In this document: positions 1-43,129 of the stretch, piece by piece
Position numbering within the stretch: position 1 is the first letter of the stretch
Layout: each line of letters begins with the position of its first letter
Assembly (NCBI RefSeq): GCF_022819385.1
Contig: NZ_CP089290.1
Coordinates: forward strand, 434,001-498,000
Length of the DNA: 64,000 nucleotides
Source of the DNA: Candidatus Nanosynbacter sp. HMT-352
GTDB taxonomy: Bacteria > Patescibacteriota > Saccharimonadia > Saccharimonadales > Saccharimonadaceae
Direction of reading: 5' to 3'
The notes under the pieces: model-generated
Database searches by the model: none
Told to the model about the DNA's origin: nothing
The model's input: only the letters and a program-made list of their open reading frames with translations
Translations under genes and position numbers: made by a program

Positions 1-993
1 TTGCATTTTGAAATTAAAACTCTGGGAGCTTCTAAGTTTTTTGCCGTATGAATATTTTCCAAGTAATGTTTTTTCCATGGCAGTTGTAAGATATAACATC
101 GCTTCTTTAGAATATTGAGTTTTGTCGTTCCAGTATACGCCAGTGTCATCTCCAGCGCCAAAATCGTAACTTCTATAAAAGCTATTACCAAAAATATCTA
201 TGGTGATAGAATTTTTAGGGAATAAGGCTATAGGATTTGAAATGTACCCAACAACTCCCGTATTGGTTCTACCCGACATAACGAAAGGTATATTGCCAGC
301 AATTTGATCGTCCTTTTTCAGTCGCCTACCTTGCTTGATTTTATCGAAAATGTCCTTGAATTTGCATTCACCAAACATTATGCTGCCATAAGCGTCTAAT
401 GATTCTTTCTCTTCACTAGACAATTCGTAATTGTCTAGTCCGCTTACCGTCAGGTAAGCGGAAAGTTCGCGTATACGCTCCTCTTCGAGTTCGCGTATAC
501 AATCGTCCATAAATTCAAAATCTATTTTTCCATCTTTTGTTGGAAGTTGGATGAATTCTTTTTTTACCTTTTCCCAACCCGCCTTATCAGTCCACGCAAA
601 GTTGCCATATATAGACTTCGCGATTGCGCCTGTTAAAAATAAATATTGATTATCATTAGGTATGTATTCCTCTTTAAACGATATAGCGTATGCATCTTGC
701 AACACTGTAAATTCTTTATTCTGGTAAAAAGTCGCTCCCGTATTTGCTCCATTTGCAGAAATAGAGATTACATTCTTTAATATAGTGGCATTATCTCTAG
801 GAGCATAATTGTTAAGACCTTGGTTTTCAATACCCGCAGTCAAAACAGGAAGAGTAAACTCTGCTATTTTTTTTGGCGATAAATCGCCTACCTTCATCTT
901 TAAATTGTTCGTTTTTAATTTCTCAAACAAATCCCCGATTCTATACTCGCCCCACTGAACGTCTTTAAGCTTTTTGTTCAGTGAGGAATCTAT
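1..993 (-). CDS. BcgI-type/type I restriction specificity (S) domain, partial, expressed by -1 frameshift
   Basis: Reading leftward from the end of the nuclease/methylase gene, an open frame in the -1 register encodes two target-recognition domains. The first opens with WGEYRIGDLFE, a typical start of a type I/BcgI S half-subunit. The second ends near the window edge with YSYGKKLRSS, a motif common in S subunits. Between them lies a charged linker with repeats (IRELEEERIREL). The domain would choose the DNA sequence bound by the methylase. No ATG, GTG or TTG lies between the preceding in-frame TGA (1018-1020) and the first recognition domain, and only CTG and ATA are available. Translation by frameshifting from the upstream gene is therefore the best reading. 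The C-terminus lies outside the window. Family assignment is confident; the expression mode is inference. Confidence 0.8.
   Translation of the reverse strand, partial: MDSSLNKKLKDVQWGEYRIGDLFEKLKTNNLKMKVGDLSPKKIAEFTLPVLTAGIENQGLNNYAPRDNATILKNVISISANGANTGATFYQNKEFTVLQDAYAISFKEEYIPNDNQYLFLTGAIAKSIYGNFAWTDKAGWEKVKKEFIQLPTKDGKIDFEFMDDCIRELEEERIRELSAYLTVSGLDNYELSSEEKESLDAYGSIMFGECKFKDIFDKIKQGRRLKKDDQIAGNIPFVMSGRTNTGVVGYISNPIALFPKNSITIDIFGNSFYRSYDFGAGDDTGVYWNDKTQYSKEAMLYLTTAMEKTLLGKYSYGKKLRSSQSFNFKMQ
415..500 (-). repeat. Tandem palindromes and 24-bp repeat in the S-domain linker
   Basis: Two perfect hairpins lie back to back in coding sequence: an 11-bp stem with a 3-nt loop (415-439) and a 10-bp stem with a 4-nt loop (439-462). 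Next to them the 13-mer AGTTCGCGTATAC occurs at 464-476 and 488-500, a 24-bp period encoding 8 residues of the linker between the two recognition domains. Confidence 0.85.
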
Positions 994-1013
994 TTTCCCA
1001 GGCGATTGTCCTC
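950..1013 (-). promoter_or_regulatory. Putative programmed -1 ribosomal frameshift signal
   Basis: On the minus strand the methylase frame reads CTG GGA AAA TAG, which contains the slippery heptamer G GGA AAA (999-993) abutting the stop codon. An SD-like GAGG (1013-1010) lies 10 nt upstream. After a 6-nt spacer, CCTCACTGAAC (986-976) can pair with GTTCAGTGGGG (960-950) as an 11-bp stem with one U-G pair and a 15-nt loop. A -1 slip continues as ATA GAT TCC into the specificity domain. The layout matches bacterial dnaX-type and IS-type -1 signals. Confidence 0.75.
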
Positions 1014-3029
1014 GCTCTCATTTTTAATCAAGCTTGACACTTCCCACGCCAGATAGTCAGCCACGGTCTTTTTAAAGTCCTCTAGCGTCGGTCTTGTGTC
1101 TATTGGCGCCGTCTGATTCCAGTCTGAGCCGTTTTCTGGGTCAATGTGTCCTTCGTAATATTCTTTTTCCGTAAAGATATTTAGCTTACTCTTTCCGAAT
1201 CGCACAAGGTCTACTACTTCCTGGTATCTTTCTTTTGCCCTGTCGGTATCTCTTAGATTTACACTAGCCTTTTTCCTGTTGGTCCTTGTGTAGCCGTCGT
1301 TTGAAAAGTCTATGAATTTAACAACTTCGTCTCTTTGGTGCGCTTCTCCCGCCCTAAACACGTATATATTTGTCTGTACGCTTGATTTCCCAACGAATAA
1401 ATCTATAGGCATTTTAATACTTGCAAGTAGTGTATTCTTCGTAAGAATCTTCTTATTGAGTTCCTTTGCTTTTCCACTACCTGCTGAATTTTGAATGATA
1501 ATGGCTGCGTATCCTCTGTTCATCATGGAAAGCGCTTTTTCTACGAAAATCATTCCATTGCCCTCTGCTGAATAAGGTGGATTAAGCACAAAGGCGGTTG
1601 CTGGGAATTTTTCATCCGTTTTGCCGAAACCGTATTTACCATCAAAATCAAGAAGTGAATCTTTATTTAAGATGTTTGAACTTCCATCTCCCATGAGTAT
1701 CATGTTTAAGATTGCAAGCATATAGATATTTGACAATACCTCTAGTCCCAAAAGCTGCTCTGCTTTTATTTTGAGTTGTTTTTGTTCTAACTCTAATGGA
1801 GATGTTATTTTTGCTTTTGCGTCTATAATCATCTCGTTCATTGCGGCAACAAGTAGTCCTGCACTTCCTGTCGCAAAGTCCCAAACATAGCTGTCTTTAT
1901 CTACCCTTGCTAGTTTTACTAAAAGATTAGCGACATAAGACGGCGTTAACACTACGTCATTTAGCTTATCTTGCGTAAAGCCGAGCCACGAGTACATTTC
2001 GTTAAATAGCTTACCTGTAAAGTCTGTGGTCAGTCCTATCTTATAGTAAATACCCAAATCATCAACTATCTTTGAAAATATTCTCTTAAGCTGACTTTCT
2101 CCGTTTATCGGCTTATTAATATTTTCAGATAATAATGTGTTTTTTAGAGTTCTTACGATAAGGTCTTGTTTTGTCTTAGGTAAGTTTTTCTGTTTTAAGA
2201 ACGCCTCTATCTTTCTAACAATGATATCCCCGTCCGTATTTCCCTCTTCTGTAGATGATTTTAATTCGGATTTTTCAAGAGGTCTTACTTTATCTGGTAT
2301 TCCGAGTGTTGCCATAATTGAAGCTGAAACAAGATATACTCTGTCATTTTCACTAAGCCCTTTTTCGTTTGCATAGATGTCATTGTTAAGCTTTACGAGG
2401 CTTGCATTTATTTCTTTCTCTCTTTTGTCTTTGAGTGCTTCCAATTCTTCACTTGATAAAGAGAGTTCGTTTACTTTCTTAATAAAATCATTAAAATTTT
2501 CTTTTCTCAAAAACGAAAGGTCGCTATATTTCCCTACTTCTTGTCCAATACCCAAGTTATCTTTGGATACATAATAAACGCCTATGGAATGTTCTATTTC
2601 GCCGTCGGCTTTTTTATATCCCGTAACACCAATAGCGATTACGTCAGTGTAGCTTGTATAGTGAAGTACGGCATTTGCGTAGTGCACTGCGCCATTTACG
2701 GCATAACTATTGATATTTTTGTAGTTGGGCTCATTTTTGCTTGTTCTGTTGTCTACTCTGCCATCTTCGTCAAGTCTAATCAGTTTATCTTTATAACCTT
2801 TGTACTCTATAAGTATTGGGTAGTGATTCAAAGCCTCATCTTGTATTAAAAGTTTAGCGTCTGGTCTGTTGCCGCCTGCGCCACCACTCTTTGACTTATA
2901 TTCGTCTAAGGCTTTGTCTATTTCTTCATTGAGGCTTTCTTGCTCTAGCTTGTAGTCTAATTTGTAATCTTTAAGCCAGCCGTTCACGAGGTCGGCAATT
3001 TTTGGTTCTATCGATTGTTGCTTAATCAT
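990..3029 (-). CDS. BcgI-like restriction nuclease/adenine methyltransferase subunit
   Basis: About 679 residues. The N-terminus has a PD-(D/E)xK nuclease signature: RPDAK near residue 57 and LIEYKG near residue 77. The centre and C-terminus form a gamma-class N6-adenine methylase with AdoMet motif DFATGSAG near residue 382 and catalytic NPPY near residue 482. A nuclease fused to an M domain, with a separate S unit, is the BcgI (type IIB) plan. The ATG at 3029 is chosen because AAGGAG lies 8 nt upstream; the in-frame TTG at 3047 has no SD. The start overlaps the end of the upstream gene by 8 nt, implying coupling. It ends on G GGA AAA TAG and probably continues by frameshifting into the specificity domain. 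It cuts and methylates foreign and self DNA respectively. Confidence 0.85.
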   Translation of the reverse strand: MIKQQSIEPKIADLVNGWLKDYKLDYKLEQESLNEEIDKALDEYKSKSGGAGGNRPDAKLLIQDEALNHYPILIEYKGYKDKLIRLDEDGRVDNRTSKNEPNYKNINSYAVNGAVHYANAVLHYTSYTDVIAIGVTGYKKADGEIEHSIGVYYVSKDNLGIGQEVGKYSDLSFLRKENFNDFIKKVNELSLSSEELEALKDKREKEINASLVKLNNDIYANEKGLSENDRVYLVSASIMATLGIPDKVRPLEKSELKSSTEEGNTDGDIIVRKIEAFLKQKNLPKTKQDLIVRTLKNTLLSENINKPINGESQLKRIFSKIVDDLGIYYKIGLTTDFTGKLFNEMYSWLGFTQDKLNDVVLTPSYVANLLVKLARVDKDSYVWDFATGSAGLLVAAMNEMIIDAKAKITSPLELEQKQLKIKAEQLLGLEVLSNIYMLAILNMILMGDGSSNILNKDSLLDFDGKYGFGKTDEKFPATAFVLNPPYSAEGNGMIFVEKALSMMNRGYAAIIIQNSAGSGKAKELNKKILTKNTLLASIKMPIDLFVGKSSVQTNIYVFRAGEAHQRDEVVKFIDFSNDGYTRTNRKKASVNLRDTDRAKERYQEVVDLVRFGKSKLNIFTEKEYYEGHIDPENGSDWNQTAPIDTRPTLEDFKKTVADYLAWEVSSLIKNESEDNRLGK

Positions 3030-38860: not shown

Positions 38861-41800
38861 ATGAATGATGATAAGAAAATAATAAAAACCACAAAGAGGA
38901 TTTATCCTCAAATATACTCTTATACTCTGCCAGATATTCCAGCAAATAAAGGTTGGCAAAAAGTCGGATATACAGAACGTAAAGACGTTGATTCGCGAAT
39001 ATTAGAACAGACTAAGACTGCGGCTGTAAAATTGCGATATGAGAAATTGTGGAGTGCTAGTTCTTTTTCTAACGCAACTCACGAATTCTTCAAGGACAAA
39101 GATCTTCACAAATATTACATAAAGAATGGAATCAAGAAGAGTAAAAAACAGGACGATGGCGGATTAGGTGAAGAGTGGTTTTACTTCAATGGTACGCCAG
39201 AAAAATCTAAAGAATTGTTTGATGATTACGCTAATGGCAATTTATTCAGTCGATCTTCCGAGAAAAGTCCGTATAAGTTGAGAAAGGAGCAAGAACGTGC
39301 CGTTTCTCAAACCCTTGCTTATGCAGAATCTCACCAGACTACAGATTTTTCTTCGCCAAATAAAGAAGCGGAATTTTTATGGAACGCAAAACCGCGTTTT
39401 GGTAAAACTCTCTCTTCTTACGATTTTGCAAAAAAATTCAATGCTAAGAATGTTTTGATAGTTACTAATCGTCCAGCAATCGCTAATTCGTGGTTTGATG
39501 ATTTCGATAAATTTATTGACGGATATTATTTTATTTCGACCGCGGATTCATTGAAAGAGCGTGAAACTTTGTCTAGGGATGATTTTATCAATAAAACCAA
39601 TTCATCAAGTGAGGATAAACAGATAACTTTCTTAAGTCTACAGGACTTAAAGGGTGGCAAGGTTTTTGGTGGACCGCACAACAAATTAAAATGGGTGGCG
39701 GATCTGAACTGGGATTTGTTGATTATAGATGAGGCTCATGAGGGCGTTGATACAGACAGAACTAATGAAGCTTTTGAGAAAATTAAACGCAGGTTCACGC
39801 TACACTTATCTGGGACGCCATTTAAGGCAATAGCGGATGGACATTTTAAGGACAATCAGATATTTAACTGGACTTATATTGATGAGCAAAAAGCTAAGCA
39901 AGAAGAACTGAAGAACTTGGACGATTCGGGTGATCACGTTAATTTGCCAGATATGAGATTGTTTACCTACAAGATGTCTGATATTATCTCTGATCGGCTT
40001 GAAAAAGGCATGGAGATGGATGATGAAAATATCGATTATGCTTTTGAGTTGAATGAAATGTTTGCAACAGACGCAAGCGGCAAGTTTATTCATGAGGATG
40101 ATATTTCAACATTCTTAAATCAATTAACTTCAAATGAAAAATATCCATTCTCAACTCCTGAGTTAAGAGACCAGTTAAAACACACGTTTTGGTTGGTAGG
40201 AAACCGTGTTGCTTCAGCGAAGGCTATGGAGAAAATGTTGCGCCATCACCCAGTATTTAGTGAATATAAAATAGTGCTTGCTGCGGGCAATGGAAGATCT
40301 CAGTCTGACGGTAATTCATCTGAAGATGAAATGAAGGATACTGCAGCTAACGAGAAAGCTCTGAGTAGGGTTAAAAAGACCATCAAGGAGAATGACCGCA
40401 CCATAACCTTATCTGTCGGGCAATTGACAACTGGAGTTACCATTAAAGAGTGGTCTGCTGTGCTTATGCTGTCTGATATTAAATCTGAATCGTTGTATAT
40501 GCAGGCAATATTTCGTTCTCAGAACCCATATGAATTTATAGATAATAACGGCAACCCCTGCCGTAAAAAGTCGGCTTATGTCTTTGATTTTTCGCCGAAT
40601 CGCGTGCTTAAAGTTTATGACAAGTTTGCCAATAGTCTATTGGCGGACGTAGCGAGAGGTGAAGCTACAGAAAAAATCAGAGAGCAGAACGTAGCAGAAT
40701 TGCTGAACTACTTCCCTGTCTTAGCGGAAGATGAATCCGGCAAGATGATCGAATTGGATGCAGAGCAAGTTTTGACTTTCCCTAAAGCCATCGTCGCGAA
40801 GGAGGTTGTTAACCGCGGTTTTGTTACTAATTTGCTATTTGTAAACATTAACAACGTCTTTAATATTCCTTCTGAGGTGATTGCGGCACTGAATAAGGCT
40901 CCTTCGACTAGCGACACTGATAAGCAGACTAAAAGCGAAGAAGTTCAACACGACCCAGATCGTAAAAAGAATCGAGACCACAGAATATCTGTAAATAAGG
41001 ATAAACTACTCGGTAATAAGGTTTACACTTCAAGAATGCAGGATATTGTGTTGTCTGCGGTTGATTCGGATATGGAGGCAGATGAGATCGTTGAAAAAAT
41101 TATCGCTGACTGCATGTCTGAAATATCTGAGCCCCTTGAGAAATATAAAGATTCCTCCTATTCTCCTTCAAAGACAGAGCTTGACAATATTAAAAGTGGA
41201 CTCTACGAAAAGGTTAAAGAAGCGGCAGAAGAGTTTGTGTCTGGCGATATAGCAGACAGAATAGCTCAGGATAAGTTAACGGATAGTCTGGCGAATATAA
41301 TTGAGAAAGATCTCCCTAACGATACCGTCATTCATAAAGAAGAGGATAAGTACGAAAAAGAAGAAAAATCTGAAATGGACCAAATTAGGAGGAAATTGCG
41401 TACATTTACTCGCGCTATTCCTTCATTTATTATGGCTGCCAGTACAGATGTAGATAAAATCACATTAGATAACATCGAGGATACTGTTTCTGACAAGGAT
41501 TTTGAGGAATTATTCACAGAAAAAGACAGTGAGCCATTTACAAAAGACGACTTCCGTAAAATTCGCGGCCCATGGACAAATCCAGAAACCGGCGAAACAT
41601 TCGAAGGATTTTTTAATCGCTATACATTTAACGCCGCCATTCGAGAGTTTGAAGAGAAGCGACAGGAAATTGCAGATTACCTCTCCCCTGGCGCCAAAGA
41701 AGACATTTTCTCTTACATTCGCCCGTTAAAAACAAATCAGATTTTTACGCCGAGGGGAGTTGTGAATAAAATGCTTGATTTGTTGGAAGAAAATAATCCT

Positions 41801-43129
41801 GGCATATTTGAAGATCCAAATACGACATTTGCGGATTTATATGTAAAGAGTGGATTGTATCTTACGGAAATAGCAAAGAGGTTAAATAGAGGACTTGAGA
41901 GTAAAATACCAGACAAATCGGAAAGAGTAAAACACATCCTTGAGAAGCAACTTTATGGATTTGCGCCAACGAATATTATCTACAATATCGCACGCAAGTA
42001 CATTTACGGGACATTTTCGGGTATTGATGATAGCAATCTTAAGCAATTAGATTTAACTGACGCGTTTAAAAAGGGAGAGACGTTAAACATGAAATTTACA
42101 GCAGTAGTTGGAAATCCGCCGTATCAGGGAGAGAATCGTCAGCAGATTTATCCAGATTTCTGGACAGCATCCATAAAGATTGCTGATGTATCTTGCATGA
42201 TCTTCCCTGTTGGATGGCAGGAGCCTAAGGATGCTAATAATCTGCGAAAGATGAATAAAGAAAGCGTAAAAAGAGATAGGCAGATAGTAAAAATAGATAA
42301 TATAGAAGATGCGTTTCCTGGTGTTTCTGGGGCAAAGTGGACAAACATAATATTATGGAAAAAAGGATACAACAATGGTCTAGATGGAAGACAGTTGGTA
42401 TTTGAAAATGGAGAAAATCCGATAAAAAGACTTCTTCCTATAAGTAAATTGGATATTAAAAAACCTCAAGAAATTATAGACCTGGCTGAAAAAATTCAAT
42501 CATTTTCTGGGTTTTTGTCAATGCAAACGATAACGTCGGTGCTCAAGCCGTATGGCTTGCGCACCGACGTTATCAGGGATTCTTCAAAATATGGATTGCC
42601 TGATATACATGATAAAAGAATGAGCAAAACAGATATAAGATTATATTCATCCAAGGGGAAGGTATTTTATGTACCGCATGATTATCCGTTTCCTAGTTTA
42701 GATAATCAATTGTCAAAATATAAGGTATTCGTACCTTATGCATGGGGAAATTGGTCTGCGAGTTCGCCATTTTTAGGTGGTGCCTATGCTAATGTTATCG
42801 TAGCTGGACCGAATGAAGCCTGTACTGAAACTTTTCAAGAACAAGGAGGGTATGACGATGAGGAGTCTGCCTGGAATCTTGCAAAGTATATAAATACAAA
42901 ATTTGTTAGAGCACTTTTATATCTAAATAAGCATAGTCAACATTCAACTACATCATGGGGTGCTGTGCCAGTTCAGGACTTTTCTGAAAAATGGTGGTGT
43001 TTATCAATTGACGAAATAGACAGATGTCTGATGAAAAAGTATGATATTCCCCAGGATATTCAAGATTTTGTTTTTAATAACATTCAACCCTGCAGTGAAT
43101 CAAATATTATAAATATTTCGCGCCAGTAG
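38861..43129 (+). CDS. Single-chain R-M enzyme: GIY-YIG-like nuclease, SF2 helicase, N6-adenine methylase
   Basis: 1422 residues. N-terminus (about 18-110): YTLPDI...WQKVGYTER with SRI and EEWFYF resembles the T5orf172/GIY-YIG nuclease. Helicase: motif I KPRFGKTL (177-184), DEAH box IIDEAHEG (288-295), LSGTPF (316-321), GQLTTGVTI near 520 and QAIFRSQNP near 550. Methylase: NQIFTPRGVV near 960, FADLYVKSGLYL near 988, catalytic NPPY near 1084. The last 250 residues are a likely target-recognition domain. This resembles type ISP enzymes (LlaGI-like) but with a different nuclease at the N-terminus. It would translocate on DNA and cut unmethylated sites. Start fixed by GGAGG and TATAAT upstream. 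A partner gene follows 7 nt downstream. Confidence 0.82.
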   Translation: MNDDKKIIKTTKRIYPQIYSYTLPDIPANKGWQKVGYTERKDVDSRILEQTKTAAVKLRYEKLWSASSFSNATHEFFKDKDLHKYYIKNGIKKSKKQDDGGLGEEWFYFNGTPEKSKELFDDYANGNLFSRSSEKSPYKLRKEQERAVSQTLAYAESHQTTDFSSPNKEAEFLWNAKPRFGKTLSSYDFAKKFNAKNVLIVTNRPAIANSWFDDFDKFIDGYYFISTADSLKERETLSRDDFINKTNSSSEDKQITFLSLQDLKGGKVFGGPHNKLKWVADLNWDLLIIDEAHEGVDTDRTNEAFEKIKRRFTLHLSGTPFKAIADGHFKDNQIFNWTYIDEQKAKQEELKNLDDSGDHVNLPDMRLFTYKMSDIISDRLEKGMEMDDENIDYAFELNEMFATDASGKFIHEDDISTFLNQLTSNEKYPFSTPELRDQLKHTFWLVGNRVASAKAMEKMLRHHPVFSEYKIVLAAGNGRSQSDGNSSEDEMKDTAANEKALSRVKKTIKENDRTITLSVGQLTTGVTIKEWSAVLMLSDIKSESLYMQAIFRSQNPYEFIDNNGNPCRKKSAYVFDFSPNRVLKVYDKFANSLLADVARGEATEKIREQNVAELLNYFPVLAEDESGKMIELDAEQVLTFPKAIVAKEVVNRGFVTNLLFVNINNVFNIPSEVIAALNKAPSTSDTDKQTKSEEVQHDPDRKKNRDHRISVNKDKLLGNKVYTSRMQDIVLSAVDSDMEADEIVEKIIADCMSEISEPLEKYKDSSYSPSKTELDNIKSGLYEKVKEAAEEFVSGDIADRIAQDKLTDSLANIIEKDLPNDTVIHKEEDKYEKEEKSEMDQIRRKLRTFTRAIPSFIMAASTDVDKITLDNIEDTVSDKDFEELFTEKDSEPFTKDDFRKIRGPWTNPETGETFEGFFNRYTFNAAIREFEEKRQEIADYLSPGAKEDIFSYIRPLKTNQIFTPRGVVNKMLDLLEENNPGIFEDPNTTFADLYVKSGLYLTEIAKRLNRGLESKIPDKSERVKHILEKQLYGFAPTNIIYNIARKYIYGTFSGIDDSNLKQLDLTDAFKKGETLNMKFTAVVGNPPYQGENRQQIYPDFWTASIKIADVSCMIFPVGWQEPKDANNLRKMNKESVKRDRQIVKIDNIEDAFPGVSGAKWTNIILWKKGYNNGLDGRQLVFENGENPIKRLLPISKLDIKKPQEIIDLAEKIQSFSGFLSMQTITSVLKPYGLRTDVIRDSSKYGLPDIHDKRMSKTDIRLYSSKGKVFYVPHDYPFPSLDNQLSKYKVFVPYAWGNWSASSPFLGGAYANVIVAGPNEACTETFQEQGGYDDEESAWNLAKYINTKFVRALLYLNKHSQHSTTSWGAVPVQDFSEKWWCLSIDEIDRCLMKKYDIPQDIQDFVFNNIQPCSESNIINISRQ
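42529..42574 (+). repeat. Perfect 14-bp palindromic insert in coding sequence
   Basis: GATAACGTCGGTGC (42529-42542) pairs with GCACCGACGTTATC (42561-42574). Inside it CAAGCC/GGCTTG pairs around GTAT. It lies in-frame between methylase and recognition regions of the R-M gene and encodes TSVLKPYGLRTDV. It is more GC-rich than its surroundings. Confidence 0.92.

What the first reader, a model, noticed from the sequence alone, without database searches (positions are those of the whole stretch)
950..1013. Programmed -1 frameshift joining nuclease/methylase to specificity domain
The methylase ends CTG GGA AAA TAG, whose G GGA AAA is a canonical X XXY YYZ heptamer touching the stop. GAGG lies 10 nt upstream and an 11-bp stem lies 6 nt downstream. 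The specificity domain is open in exactly the -1 frame and has no ATG, GTG or TTG before its first recognition domain. All parts of a dnaX/IS-type signal coincide. It would set the ratio of free nuclease/methylase to a methylase-specificity fusion. I know of no described R-M system controlled this way.
Basis: partly seen in the sequence, partly recalled or inferred. Interest (0 to 1): 0.87.

Follow-up and report, generated by a model that had tools for sequence, protein, structure and literature searches.

The report
Ribosome frameshift builds restriction enzyme
A bacterial DNA-cutting defence enzyme has its target-finding part encoded one base out of step, and signals kept in many bacterial groups indicate that ribosomes deliberately slip back one base to fuse it on, so copies annotated as broken may be intact.

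Summary
On the minus strand, a BcgI-like nuclease-methylase (RM, 679 aa) ends G GGA AAA TAG. GAGG lies 10 nt upstream of the heptamer, an 11-bp stem starts 6 nt after it (z -4.4), and the specificity region (S) is open in the -1 frame without a start codon before its first recognition domain.

The signal is conserved. Of 80 readable junctions (window plus 79 relatives, 12 phylum-level groups), 79 carry X XXA AAR in frame and 56 an SD-like core. In 78 aligned sequences 97% of stem cells pair, with compensatory changes and 110 G-U versus 5 A-C cells, so RNA is selected. The stop moves up to 24 nt while heptamer and stem stay. Other members use A AAA AAG, C CCA AAG or unrelated stems in the same place.

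Best explanation: programmed -1 frameshifting makes RM and an RM-S fusion from one mRNA (about 0.95). Supplying the known 2RM:1S stoichiometry is a likely purpose (about 0.5); natural in-frame fusions of two-domain size weaken it. Ten searches of an open-access library found no description; one paper read an apparently equivalent Helicobacter pylori junction as inactivating. No frameshift product has been measured.

The parts
990..3029 (-). RM gene: nuclease-methyltransferase, 679 aa, ends ...EDNRLGK stop
   Evidence: PF02384; 75-92% identity (best segment) to the 80 relatives
2799..2864 (-). PD-(D/E)XK nuclease motif region: P56-D57 ... E75-Y-K77
   Evidence: P56, D57, E75, K77 invariant in 32 rows; P56, E75, K77 invariant in 31 rows that include five BcgI-like outgroups
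1572..1583 (-). NPPY catalytic motif (residues 483-486) of the N6-adenine methyltransferase
   Evidence: invariant; PF02384
1010..1013 (-). SD-like GAGG, 10 nt upstream of the heptamer
   Evidence: 56 of 80 junctions have an SD core 6-14 nt upstream
993..999 (-). slippery heptamer G GGA AAA
   Evidence: 79 of 80 junctions have X XXA AAR in frame
990..992 (-). zero-frame stop TAG of RM, directly after the heptamer
   Evidence: 0 nt after the heptamer in 75 of 80, 3 nt in 3, 12 and 24 nt in one each
987..992 (-). 6-nt spacer between heptamer and stem
   Evidence: register kept in relatives, stems begin 4-6 nt after the heptamer in the 15 further loci
976..986 (-). 5' arm of the 11-bp stem (CCTCACTGAAC)
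950..960 (-). 3' arm of the stem (GTTCAGTGGGG)
1..993 (-). S (specificity) region in the -1 frame, 331 codons to the window edge, no own start codon before the first domain, two Methylase_S stretches
928..930 (-). first ATG/GTG/TTG of the S frame (TTG), inside the first recognition domain; the same codon is TTG in 41 of 79 relatives only

Best explanation
This is a programmed -1 ribosomal frameshift site of the dnaX/IS3 kind that decodes a BcgI-like (Type IIB) restriction-modification gene pair. Ribosomes translating RM reach G GGA AAA, held by the SD-like GAGG behind and the stem ahead. Some stop at TAG and release RM (nuclease + methyltransferase). The rest slip back one base and read on, making an RM-S fusion that carries the target-recognition domains. 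One mRNA thus gives RM and RM-S. The likely purpose is to supply the 2RM:1S stoichiometry known for BcgI and BsaXI: one RM plus one RM-S, the composition that an engineered EcoKI M-S fusion needed in vitro. Shown here: the anatomy, its conservation, RNA-level covariation, and constancy of heptamer class and spacing. Inferred: that slippage happens, its efficiency, and its purpose. My estimate is about 0.95 for programmed frameshifting and about 0.5 for the stoichiometry role.
For: Heptamer: in 80 readable junctions, GGGAAAA 53, GGGAAAG 22, AAAAAAA 4, GGAAAAG 1. Before GGA the amino acid varies (L, P, S, E, M) but all 75 codons end in G. Among further relatives, A AAA AAG occurs in L091, L119, L152 and C CCA AAG in L154-L156. 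C CCA AAG, G GGA AAG and A AAA AAG are the three most efficient heptamers measured in E. coli with stimulators (PMC4066793, passages).

Stem: 12 pairs in 78 sequences, 97.2% of 936 cells paired against 92.9% shuffled and 33-47% slid; 53 double-changed cells against 5.8; G-U 110, A-C 5. Unrelated stems begin 4-6 nt after the heptamer: L060, L121, L125 in one class, L091, L119, L124 in another; L160-L162 have a similar layout.

Stop position: 0 nt after the heptamer in 75 of 80, 3 nt in 3, 12 and 24 nt in one each, with heptamer and stem in register.

SD-like core: 56 of 80, mostly 9-11 nt upstream.

S-frame codon 0 is ATA 48, GTA 20, ATG 7, others 5, so there is no conserved initiator.

A second RM family (L104, 39% identity, 35%; with L121, L124, L125) has GGGAAAG and -1 S. 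P0153 contains in frame the peptide LGKIDASLNEKL that slippage would make (one sequence, a sequencing indel is not excluded).

Stoichiometry: 2RM:1S for BcgI/BsaXI (PMC4027205, PMC3874165, PMC4081073, PMC9159934 passages; PMC11997821 abstract and passages); the EcoKI fusion needs added M in vitro (PMC3510504, abstract and sections 19-20).
Against: No protein, reporter or ribosome-profiling evidence was available. The window's own heptamer ends AAA, not AAG, the best form in E. coli. Natural in-frame fusions exist: among the 120 listed proteins, 38 of one-domain size (848-894 aa) and 14 of two-domain size (1036-1066 aa) hold most of an RM part, so free RM is not always required. In the Campylobacterota sample 9 of the 29 new loci L134-L162 are in-frame (one interrupted) and two (L150, L159) have S in the +1 frame; that query was itself an in-frame fusion, which favours such loci. 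Seven of 80 junctions have an ATG at codon 0 and 32 of 79 relatives some start in the first 13 codons. The tree-based test of paired changes is in the right direction but underpowered: 3.7 pairs same way, 0 other way, median p 0.125. H. pylori systems of this layout were reported inactive, and S with an engineered start gave an active methylase in one of two systems, so a separate S can work (PMC3936762, passages). L030 and L003 have early stops in S (13 and 82 codons).
Confidence: 0.87

Rival explanations
1. Termination-reinitiation: S is a separate protein started at or near the overlap (ATA/ATT/GTA or another weak codon, ATG where the stop is TGA), helped by the SD-like sequence, as in EcoKI hsdM/hsdS.
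For: Distant relatives (27-46% identity: L082, L083, L085, L086, L088) have ATG-started S overlapping the RM end. Seven of 80 junctions have ATG at codon 0. EcoKI genes overlap by 1 nt and are coupled (PMC3510504 abstract). IS911 combines AUU initiation with frameshifting (title of a reference seen).
Against: Codon 0 is not a usual start in most (ATA 48, GTA 20, also GCA, GTC). Reinitiation explains neither the heptamer nor its change between G, A and C classes, nor why heptamer and stem keep register when the stop moves 12-24 nt downstream. The distant ATG relatives use the -2 frame.
Confidence: 0.06
2. Inactivated or phase-variable locus: S is out of frame by mutation or assembly error and is switched by indels, as annotators and one paper assumed.
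For: RefSeq marks S as incomplete in one E. coli locus. H. pylori BcgI-like systems were called inactive, most likely for lack of an S start (PMC3936762). Some S genes carry G tracts (L067, L155, L156). L030 and L003 have early stops in S.
Against: The same -1 junction occurs in all 80 readable junctions, with S otherwise mostly open: 72 S frames end inside their contig and 68 of them have at least 356 codons. Stems show compensatory change. The GGGAAAR heptamer holds at most 4 A. Decay would not keep these.
Confidence: 0.03
3. Transcriptional slippage on the A run makes a mixed mRNA population.
For: Four of the 80 junctions have seven A; 70 of the 120 nearest proteins end in KK, compatible with A-rich sites.
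Against: 75 of 80 junctions are GGGAAAR with at most 4 A, and C CCA AAG has three. A downstream stem and SD-like element have no known role in polymerase slippage on such short runs (recalled).
Confidence: 0.02
4. The inverted repeat is a DNA element, for example a recombination site for exchanging S genes, and not an RNA stimulator.
For: S N-terminal types and their stems appear to travel together across the two RM families, so S exchange with its stem is likely.
Against: G-U cells outnumber A-C cells 110 to 5, which a DNA repeat does not explain; position relative to the heptamer is nearly fixed.
Confidence: 0.02

Closest known systems
BcgI / BsaXI / Sau42I-like Type IIB R-M systems
   Same: RM chain with PD-(D/E)XK and N6-adenine methyltransferase motifs, followed by an S gene; the methyltransferase part matches HsdM folds, with BsaXI among the structure hits.
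   Different: In the BcgI-like outgroups examined (L082, L083, L085, L086, L088) S has its own ATG and lies in the -2 frame; here S has no start and lies in the -1 frame behind a slippery site.
H. pylori HP1471/HP1472 and JHP1364/JHP1365 (Hpy99XXII)
   Same: Described as a BcgI-like pair with a stop after RM, no start for S and a G repeat in S (PMC3936762, passages). Unnamed Campylobacterota loci L155 and L156 show such a layout with C CCA AAG and a G tract in S.
   Different: The paper reads the junction as the likely cause of inactivity; no frameshift signal is mentioned in the passages I saw. I could not fetch those named genes, so their heptamer is not verified here.
dnaX, lambda G/GT and IS3/IS911 -1 frameshift signals (details partly recalled)
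   Same: V VVA AAR heptamer, SD-like element about 10 nt upstream, stem about 6 nt downstream.
   Different: Products are a restriction-modification subunit and its fusion to a specificity subunit; no Rfam match in window 800-1200.
EcoKI engineered M-S fusion (Type IMS)
   Same: Fusion of modification and specificity chains works and needs extra free M in vitro (PMC3510504, abstract and sections 19-20).
   Different: Made by removing the frame change in the laboratory; natural EcoKI uses coupled translation of overlapping genes.
AloI / TstI single-chain Type IIB
   Same: Covalent RM-S; in-frame 1036-1066 aa relatives here resemble this.
   Different: Only one chain type (1RM:2 domains, PMC3874165 passages), whereas frameshifting would yield two chain types.

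Membership tests
bacterial programmed -1 frameshift signal | X XXY YYZ heptamer in the zero frame at the end of ORF1 | tested here: met
   window 999-993; 79 of 80 junctions
bacterial programmed -1 frameshift signal | stimulatory RNA structure 5-9 nt downstream | tested here: met
   6-nt spacer in the window, z -4.38; covariation; stimulation itself not measured
bacterial programmed -1 frameshift signal | SD-like element upstream (often present) | tested here: met
   GAGG at 10 nt in the window; 56 of 80 junctions
bacterial programmed -1 frameshift signal | downstream ORF open in the -1 frame without conserved start | tested here: met
bacterial programmed -1 frameshift signal | trans-frame product made above background | not testable with these tools
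   no expression or proteomic data held
BcgI-like Type IIB R-M | RM chain with nuclease and N6-adenine methyltransferase | tested here: met
   motif residues invariant, PF02384; structure matches cover mainly residues 200-648, so the nuclease rests on the motif
BcgI-like Type IIB R-M | S subunit with two recognition domains | tested here: met
   two Methylase_S stretches in the window S although cut; of four complete relatives tested, two in L001, L006, L084 and one in L069
BcgI-like Type IIB R-M | S made as a separate polypeptide from its own start | tested here: not met
   no ATG, GTG or TTG in the window S frame before the first domain
BcgI-like Type IIB R-M | 2RM:1S complex cutting both sides of a bipartite site | not testable with these tools
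   biochemistry needed
Type I R-M (HsdR/M/S) | separate HsdR motor subunit beside M and S | tested here: inconclusive
   upstream gene is an RNA uracil-methyltransferase homologue; the other side is beyond the window edge

The most novel reading that the evidence does not exclude
The ribosome is the assembly counter of a whole class of R-M enzymes. A tuned slip of about 50% makes RM and RM-S in the 1:1 ratio that gives (RM)2S directly, with one RM covalently tethered. The need for a frame change is strong enough that the family has moved between G, A and C heptamers, taken up unrelated stems, and in two related genomes (L150, L159) replaced the -1 site by an RF2-like +1 site (CTT TAG C). Many R-M loci annotated as broken would then be active.
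Probability: 0.4. Interest if true: 0.93.

Novelty: new variant of a known kind. Interest (0 to 1): 0.86.

Why it matters
Both halves are known kinds (BcgI-like R-M, -1 frameshifting), but I found no report joining them. If true, many R-M systems are decoded by recoding and are mis-annotated, with S given a start 68 nt downstream of the RM stop or marked incomplete. It offers a concrete explanation for the H. pylori pair judged inactive for want of an S start, a natural answer to how an M-S fusion gets its free partner, and specificity modules whose stem travels with S. It can be tested with standard reporters in E. coli K-12.

Tried and rejected
Rejected: decay or assembly error (80 of 80 readable junctions share the frame); a conserved alternative start; a DNA-level repeat (G-U 110 against A-C 5); polymerase slippage as the general mechanism (at most 4 A in 75 of 80).

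I first thought hard-wired fusions with two recognition domains would be absent if free RM were essential. The search listed 14 of two-domain size with an RM part, so I lowered the stoichiometry claim. I printed the junctions of seven such in-frame loci and saw no clear heptamer-plus-stem for a reverse, dnaX-like slip; no systematic scan was made.

Led nowhere: no whole genome is held for the window; no solved structure by sequence; no Rfam family; an exact-pattern scan of viral contigs returned one contig, already seen. Supplements of the GeneTack and heptamer papers could not be read (no look-ups allowed), so a cluster of this family in their tables is not excluded; the main texts showed none under the terms I searched.

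Limits: the 80 loci are the best 80 of 281 relatives found, so close relatives are over-represented. L043 runs off its contig and was dropped. Eight of the 80 S frames run off their contig or the window (L039 shows only 17 codons). L039 (short) and L060 (different stem) were left out of the stem count. Viral locus L094 (partial match, 52%) was not classed. The sixteen relatives of at most 33% identity and the six of at most 36% were classed by eye from printed junctions: in-frame extension, or S in the -2 frame usually with a nearby ATG; none has S in the -1 frame. In one search loci were made for only the best 30 matches.

Full report
WHAT IS THERE. On the minus strand the window holds an RM gene (990-3029) whose product has an N6-adenine methyltransferase domain (PF02384), an NPPY motif and a PD-(x17)-ExK nuclease motif, both invariant in 32 aligned relatives. 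P, E and K of the nuclease motif are also invariant in an alignment of 31 rows with five BcgI-like outgroups. An AlphaFold model (mean pLDDT 72) matches Type I HsdM chains over residues 200-648, with BsaXI chains among the hits; the nuclease domain is not independently confirmed by fold. RM ends CTG GGA AAA TAG. The next 331 codons to the window edge encode an S region with two Methylase_S stretches in the -1 frame with no ATG, GTG or TTG before the first recognition domain.

CONSERVATION. A scan of GTDB species genomes found 281 relatives and kept the best 80. Eighty junctions could be read, the window included and L043 dropped. In each, S lies in the -1 frame behind the end of RM: GGGAAAA 53, GGGAAAG 22, AAAAAAA 4 and one GGAAAAG (L027), the only one that is not X XXA AAR. 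S is cut short by a stop in L030 (13 codons) and L003 (82). GGA makes up 32% of Gly codons in the gene bodies but 75 of 75 here. The stop follows directly in 75, and 3, 12 or 24 nt later in five, while heptamer and stem keep their register. The rows fall into 12 phylum-level groups (two rows ungrouped) and the phyla are mixed on the tree, which suggests horizontal transfer. Of the 120 nearest database proteins 47 end LGK, 70 end KK and 3 end with a short extension, compatible with such a site.

RNA STRUCTURE. In 78 aligned junctions (L039 and L060 left out) a 12-bp stem pairs in 97.2% of 936 cells, with 53 double-changed cells against 5.8 in shuffles; slid controls pair 33-47%. The clearest pair joins the silent third base of a Leu codon to the first base of the Lys/Glu/Gln codon before the conserved Trp: CTT-AAG 29, CTC-GAG 25, CTT-GAG 14, CTG-CAG 4, six others. 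No coding reason links these. G-U cells number 110 and A-C cells 5, so the sense-strand RNA is selected. A phylogenetically corrected test on this pair had too few independent changes to be significant, though none went the wrong way. SD-like cores lie 6-14 nt upstream in 56 of 80, peaking at 9-11 nt.

INDEPENDENT REPLACEMENTS. L060 (family A) and L121, L125 (family B, RM 35-39% identical to the window's for L104) share a second S type with an unrelated stem; L091, L119 and L124 share a third; their stems begin 4-6 nt after the heptamer. L091, L119 and L152 use A AAA AAG; L154-L156 use C CCA AAG; L160-L162 (47% identity) use GGGAAAR with the stop one codon later. The three best heptamers measured in E. 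coli (PMC4066793, passages) are thus all used. L150 and L159, which are related to each other, have S in the +1 frame with CTT TAG C at the stop, resembling the release factor 2 site (recalled); only two cases, untested.

OTHER SOLUTIONS IN RELATIVES. BcgI-like outgroups (L082, L083, L085, L086, L088) start S at an ATG in the -2 frame. In-frame RM-S fusions exist: L092 has one Methylase_S stretch, and L122, L123 and L140 have extensions of that size. Of 120 proteins listed, 80 hold RM sequence reaching residue 600 or beyond; 38 of these are 848-894 aa (one-domain size) and 14 are 1036-1066 aa (two-domain size, such as P0162). P0153 carries the exact in-frame peptide that slippage is predicted to create (one sequence). 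Among 29 new Campylobacterota loci (L134-L162, the best matches to an in-frame fusion query), 18 have a -1 heptamer, 9 are in-frame (L137 interrupted) and 2 are +1; 74 of 397 sampled genomes of that phylum had a match at E 1e-60.

FUNCTION. BcgI and BsaXI are (RM)2S. An engineered EcoKI M-S fusion needs free M in vitro. Frameshifting would yield such a mixture. The in-frame fusions of two-domain size show that the mixture is not indispensable in every lineage, so I hold this purpose at about 0.5. Other purposes (keeping S scarce, delaying active nuclease) are not excluded.

LITERATURE. Ten searches of the open-access library and passages or sections of fourteen papers showed no report of recoding at an RM-S junction. 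PMC3850674 (passages) tested for a frameshift in a control protein-endonuclease fusion and saw no product. PMC3936762 (passages) notes a stop after RM and no S start in H. pylori BcgI-like systems, calls this the most likely cause of inactivity, and reports an active methylase for one of two systems after an S start was engineered and S corrected. Most subscription papers are not in that library, and supplements were not searchable.

ANNOTATION. 29 of 5426 E. coli genomes carry a match to the PhiR12_3 version (20 covering at least 80% of the query). In the three looked at, S is annotated as starting 68 nt after the RM stop, as incomplete, or from an upstream start inside the RM gene.

Noticed in passing
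L150 and L159 (junction CTT TAG C): S lies in the +1 frame without a start, and the RM end reads CTT TAG C behind an AAGGA, resembling the +1 site of release factor 2 (recalled). The two loci are related (about 90% DNA identity over 2157 nt).
   Followed up: partly
window 38861-43129 (+): 1422-aa protein with a ResIII helicase-type domain and an Eco57I-type methylase domain, likely a second, single-chain R-M system (Type ISP-like) in the same window.
   Followed up: partly
window 3022-3029: RM start (ATG at 3029) overlaps the end of an upstream RNA uracil-5-methyltransferase homologue by 8 nt, so RM translation may be coupled to it.
   Followed up: no
L067, L155, L156 (S region): Runs of 8-16 G inside S near the middle of the gene, so some members may also be phase-variable.
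   Followed up: partly
L092, L122, L123, L140: In-frame RM-S fusions of one-domain size in both RM families, beside frameshift relatives.
   Followed up: partly
P0128, P0134, P0141, P0195: Specificity-domain proteins that also carry a PF00717 (peptidase S24 / LexA-type) domain, without an RM part.
   Followed up: no
L118, L119, L120: RefSeq annotates S after this junction inconsistently: late start, incomplete, or an upstream start inside RM.
   Followed up: yes
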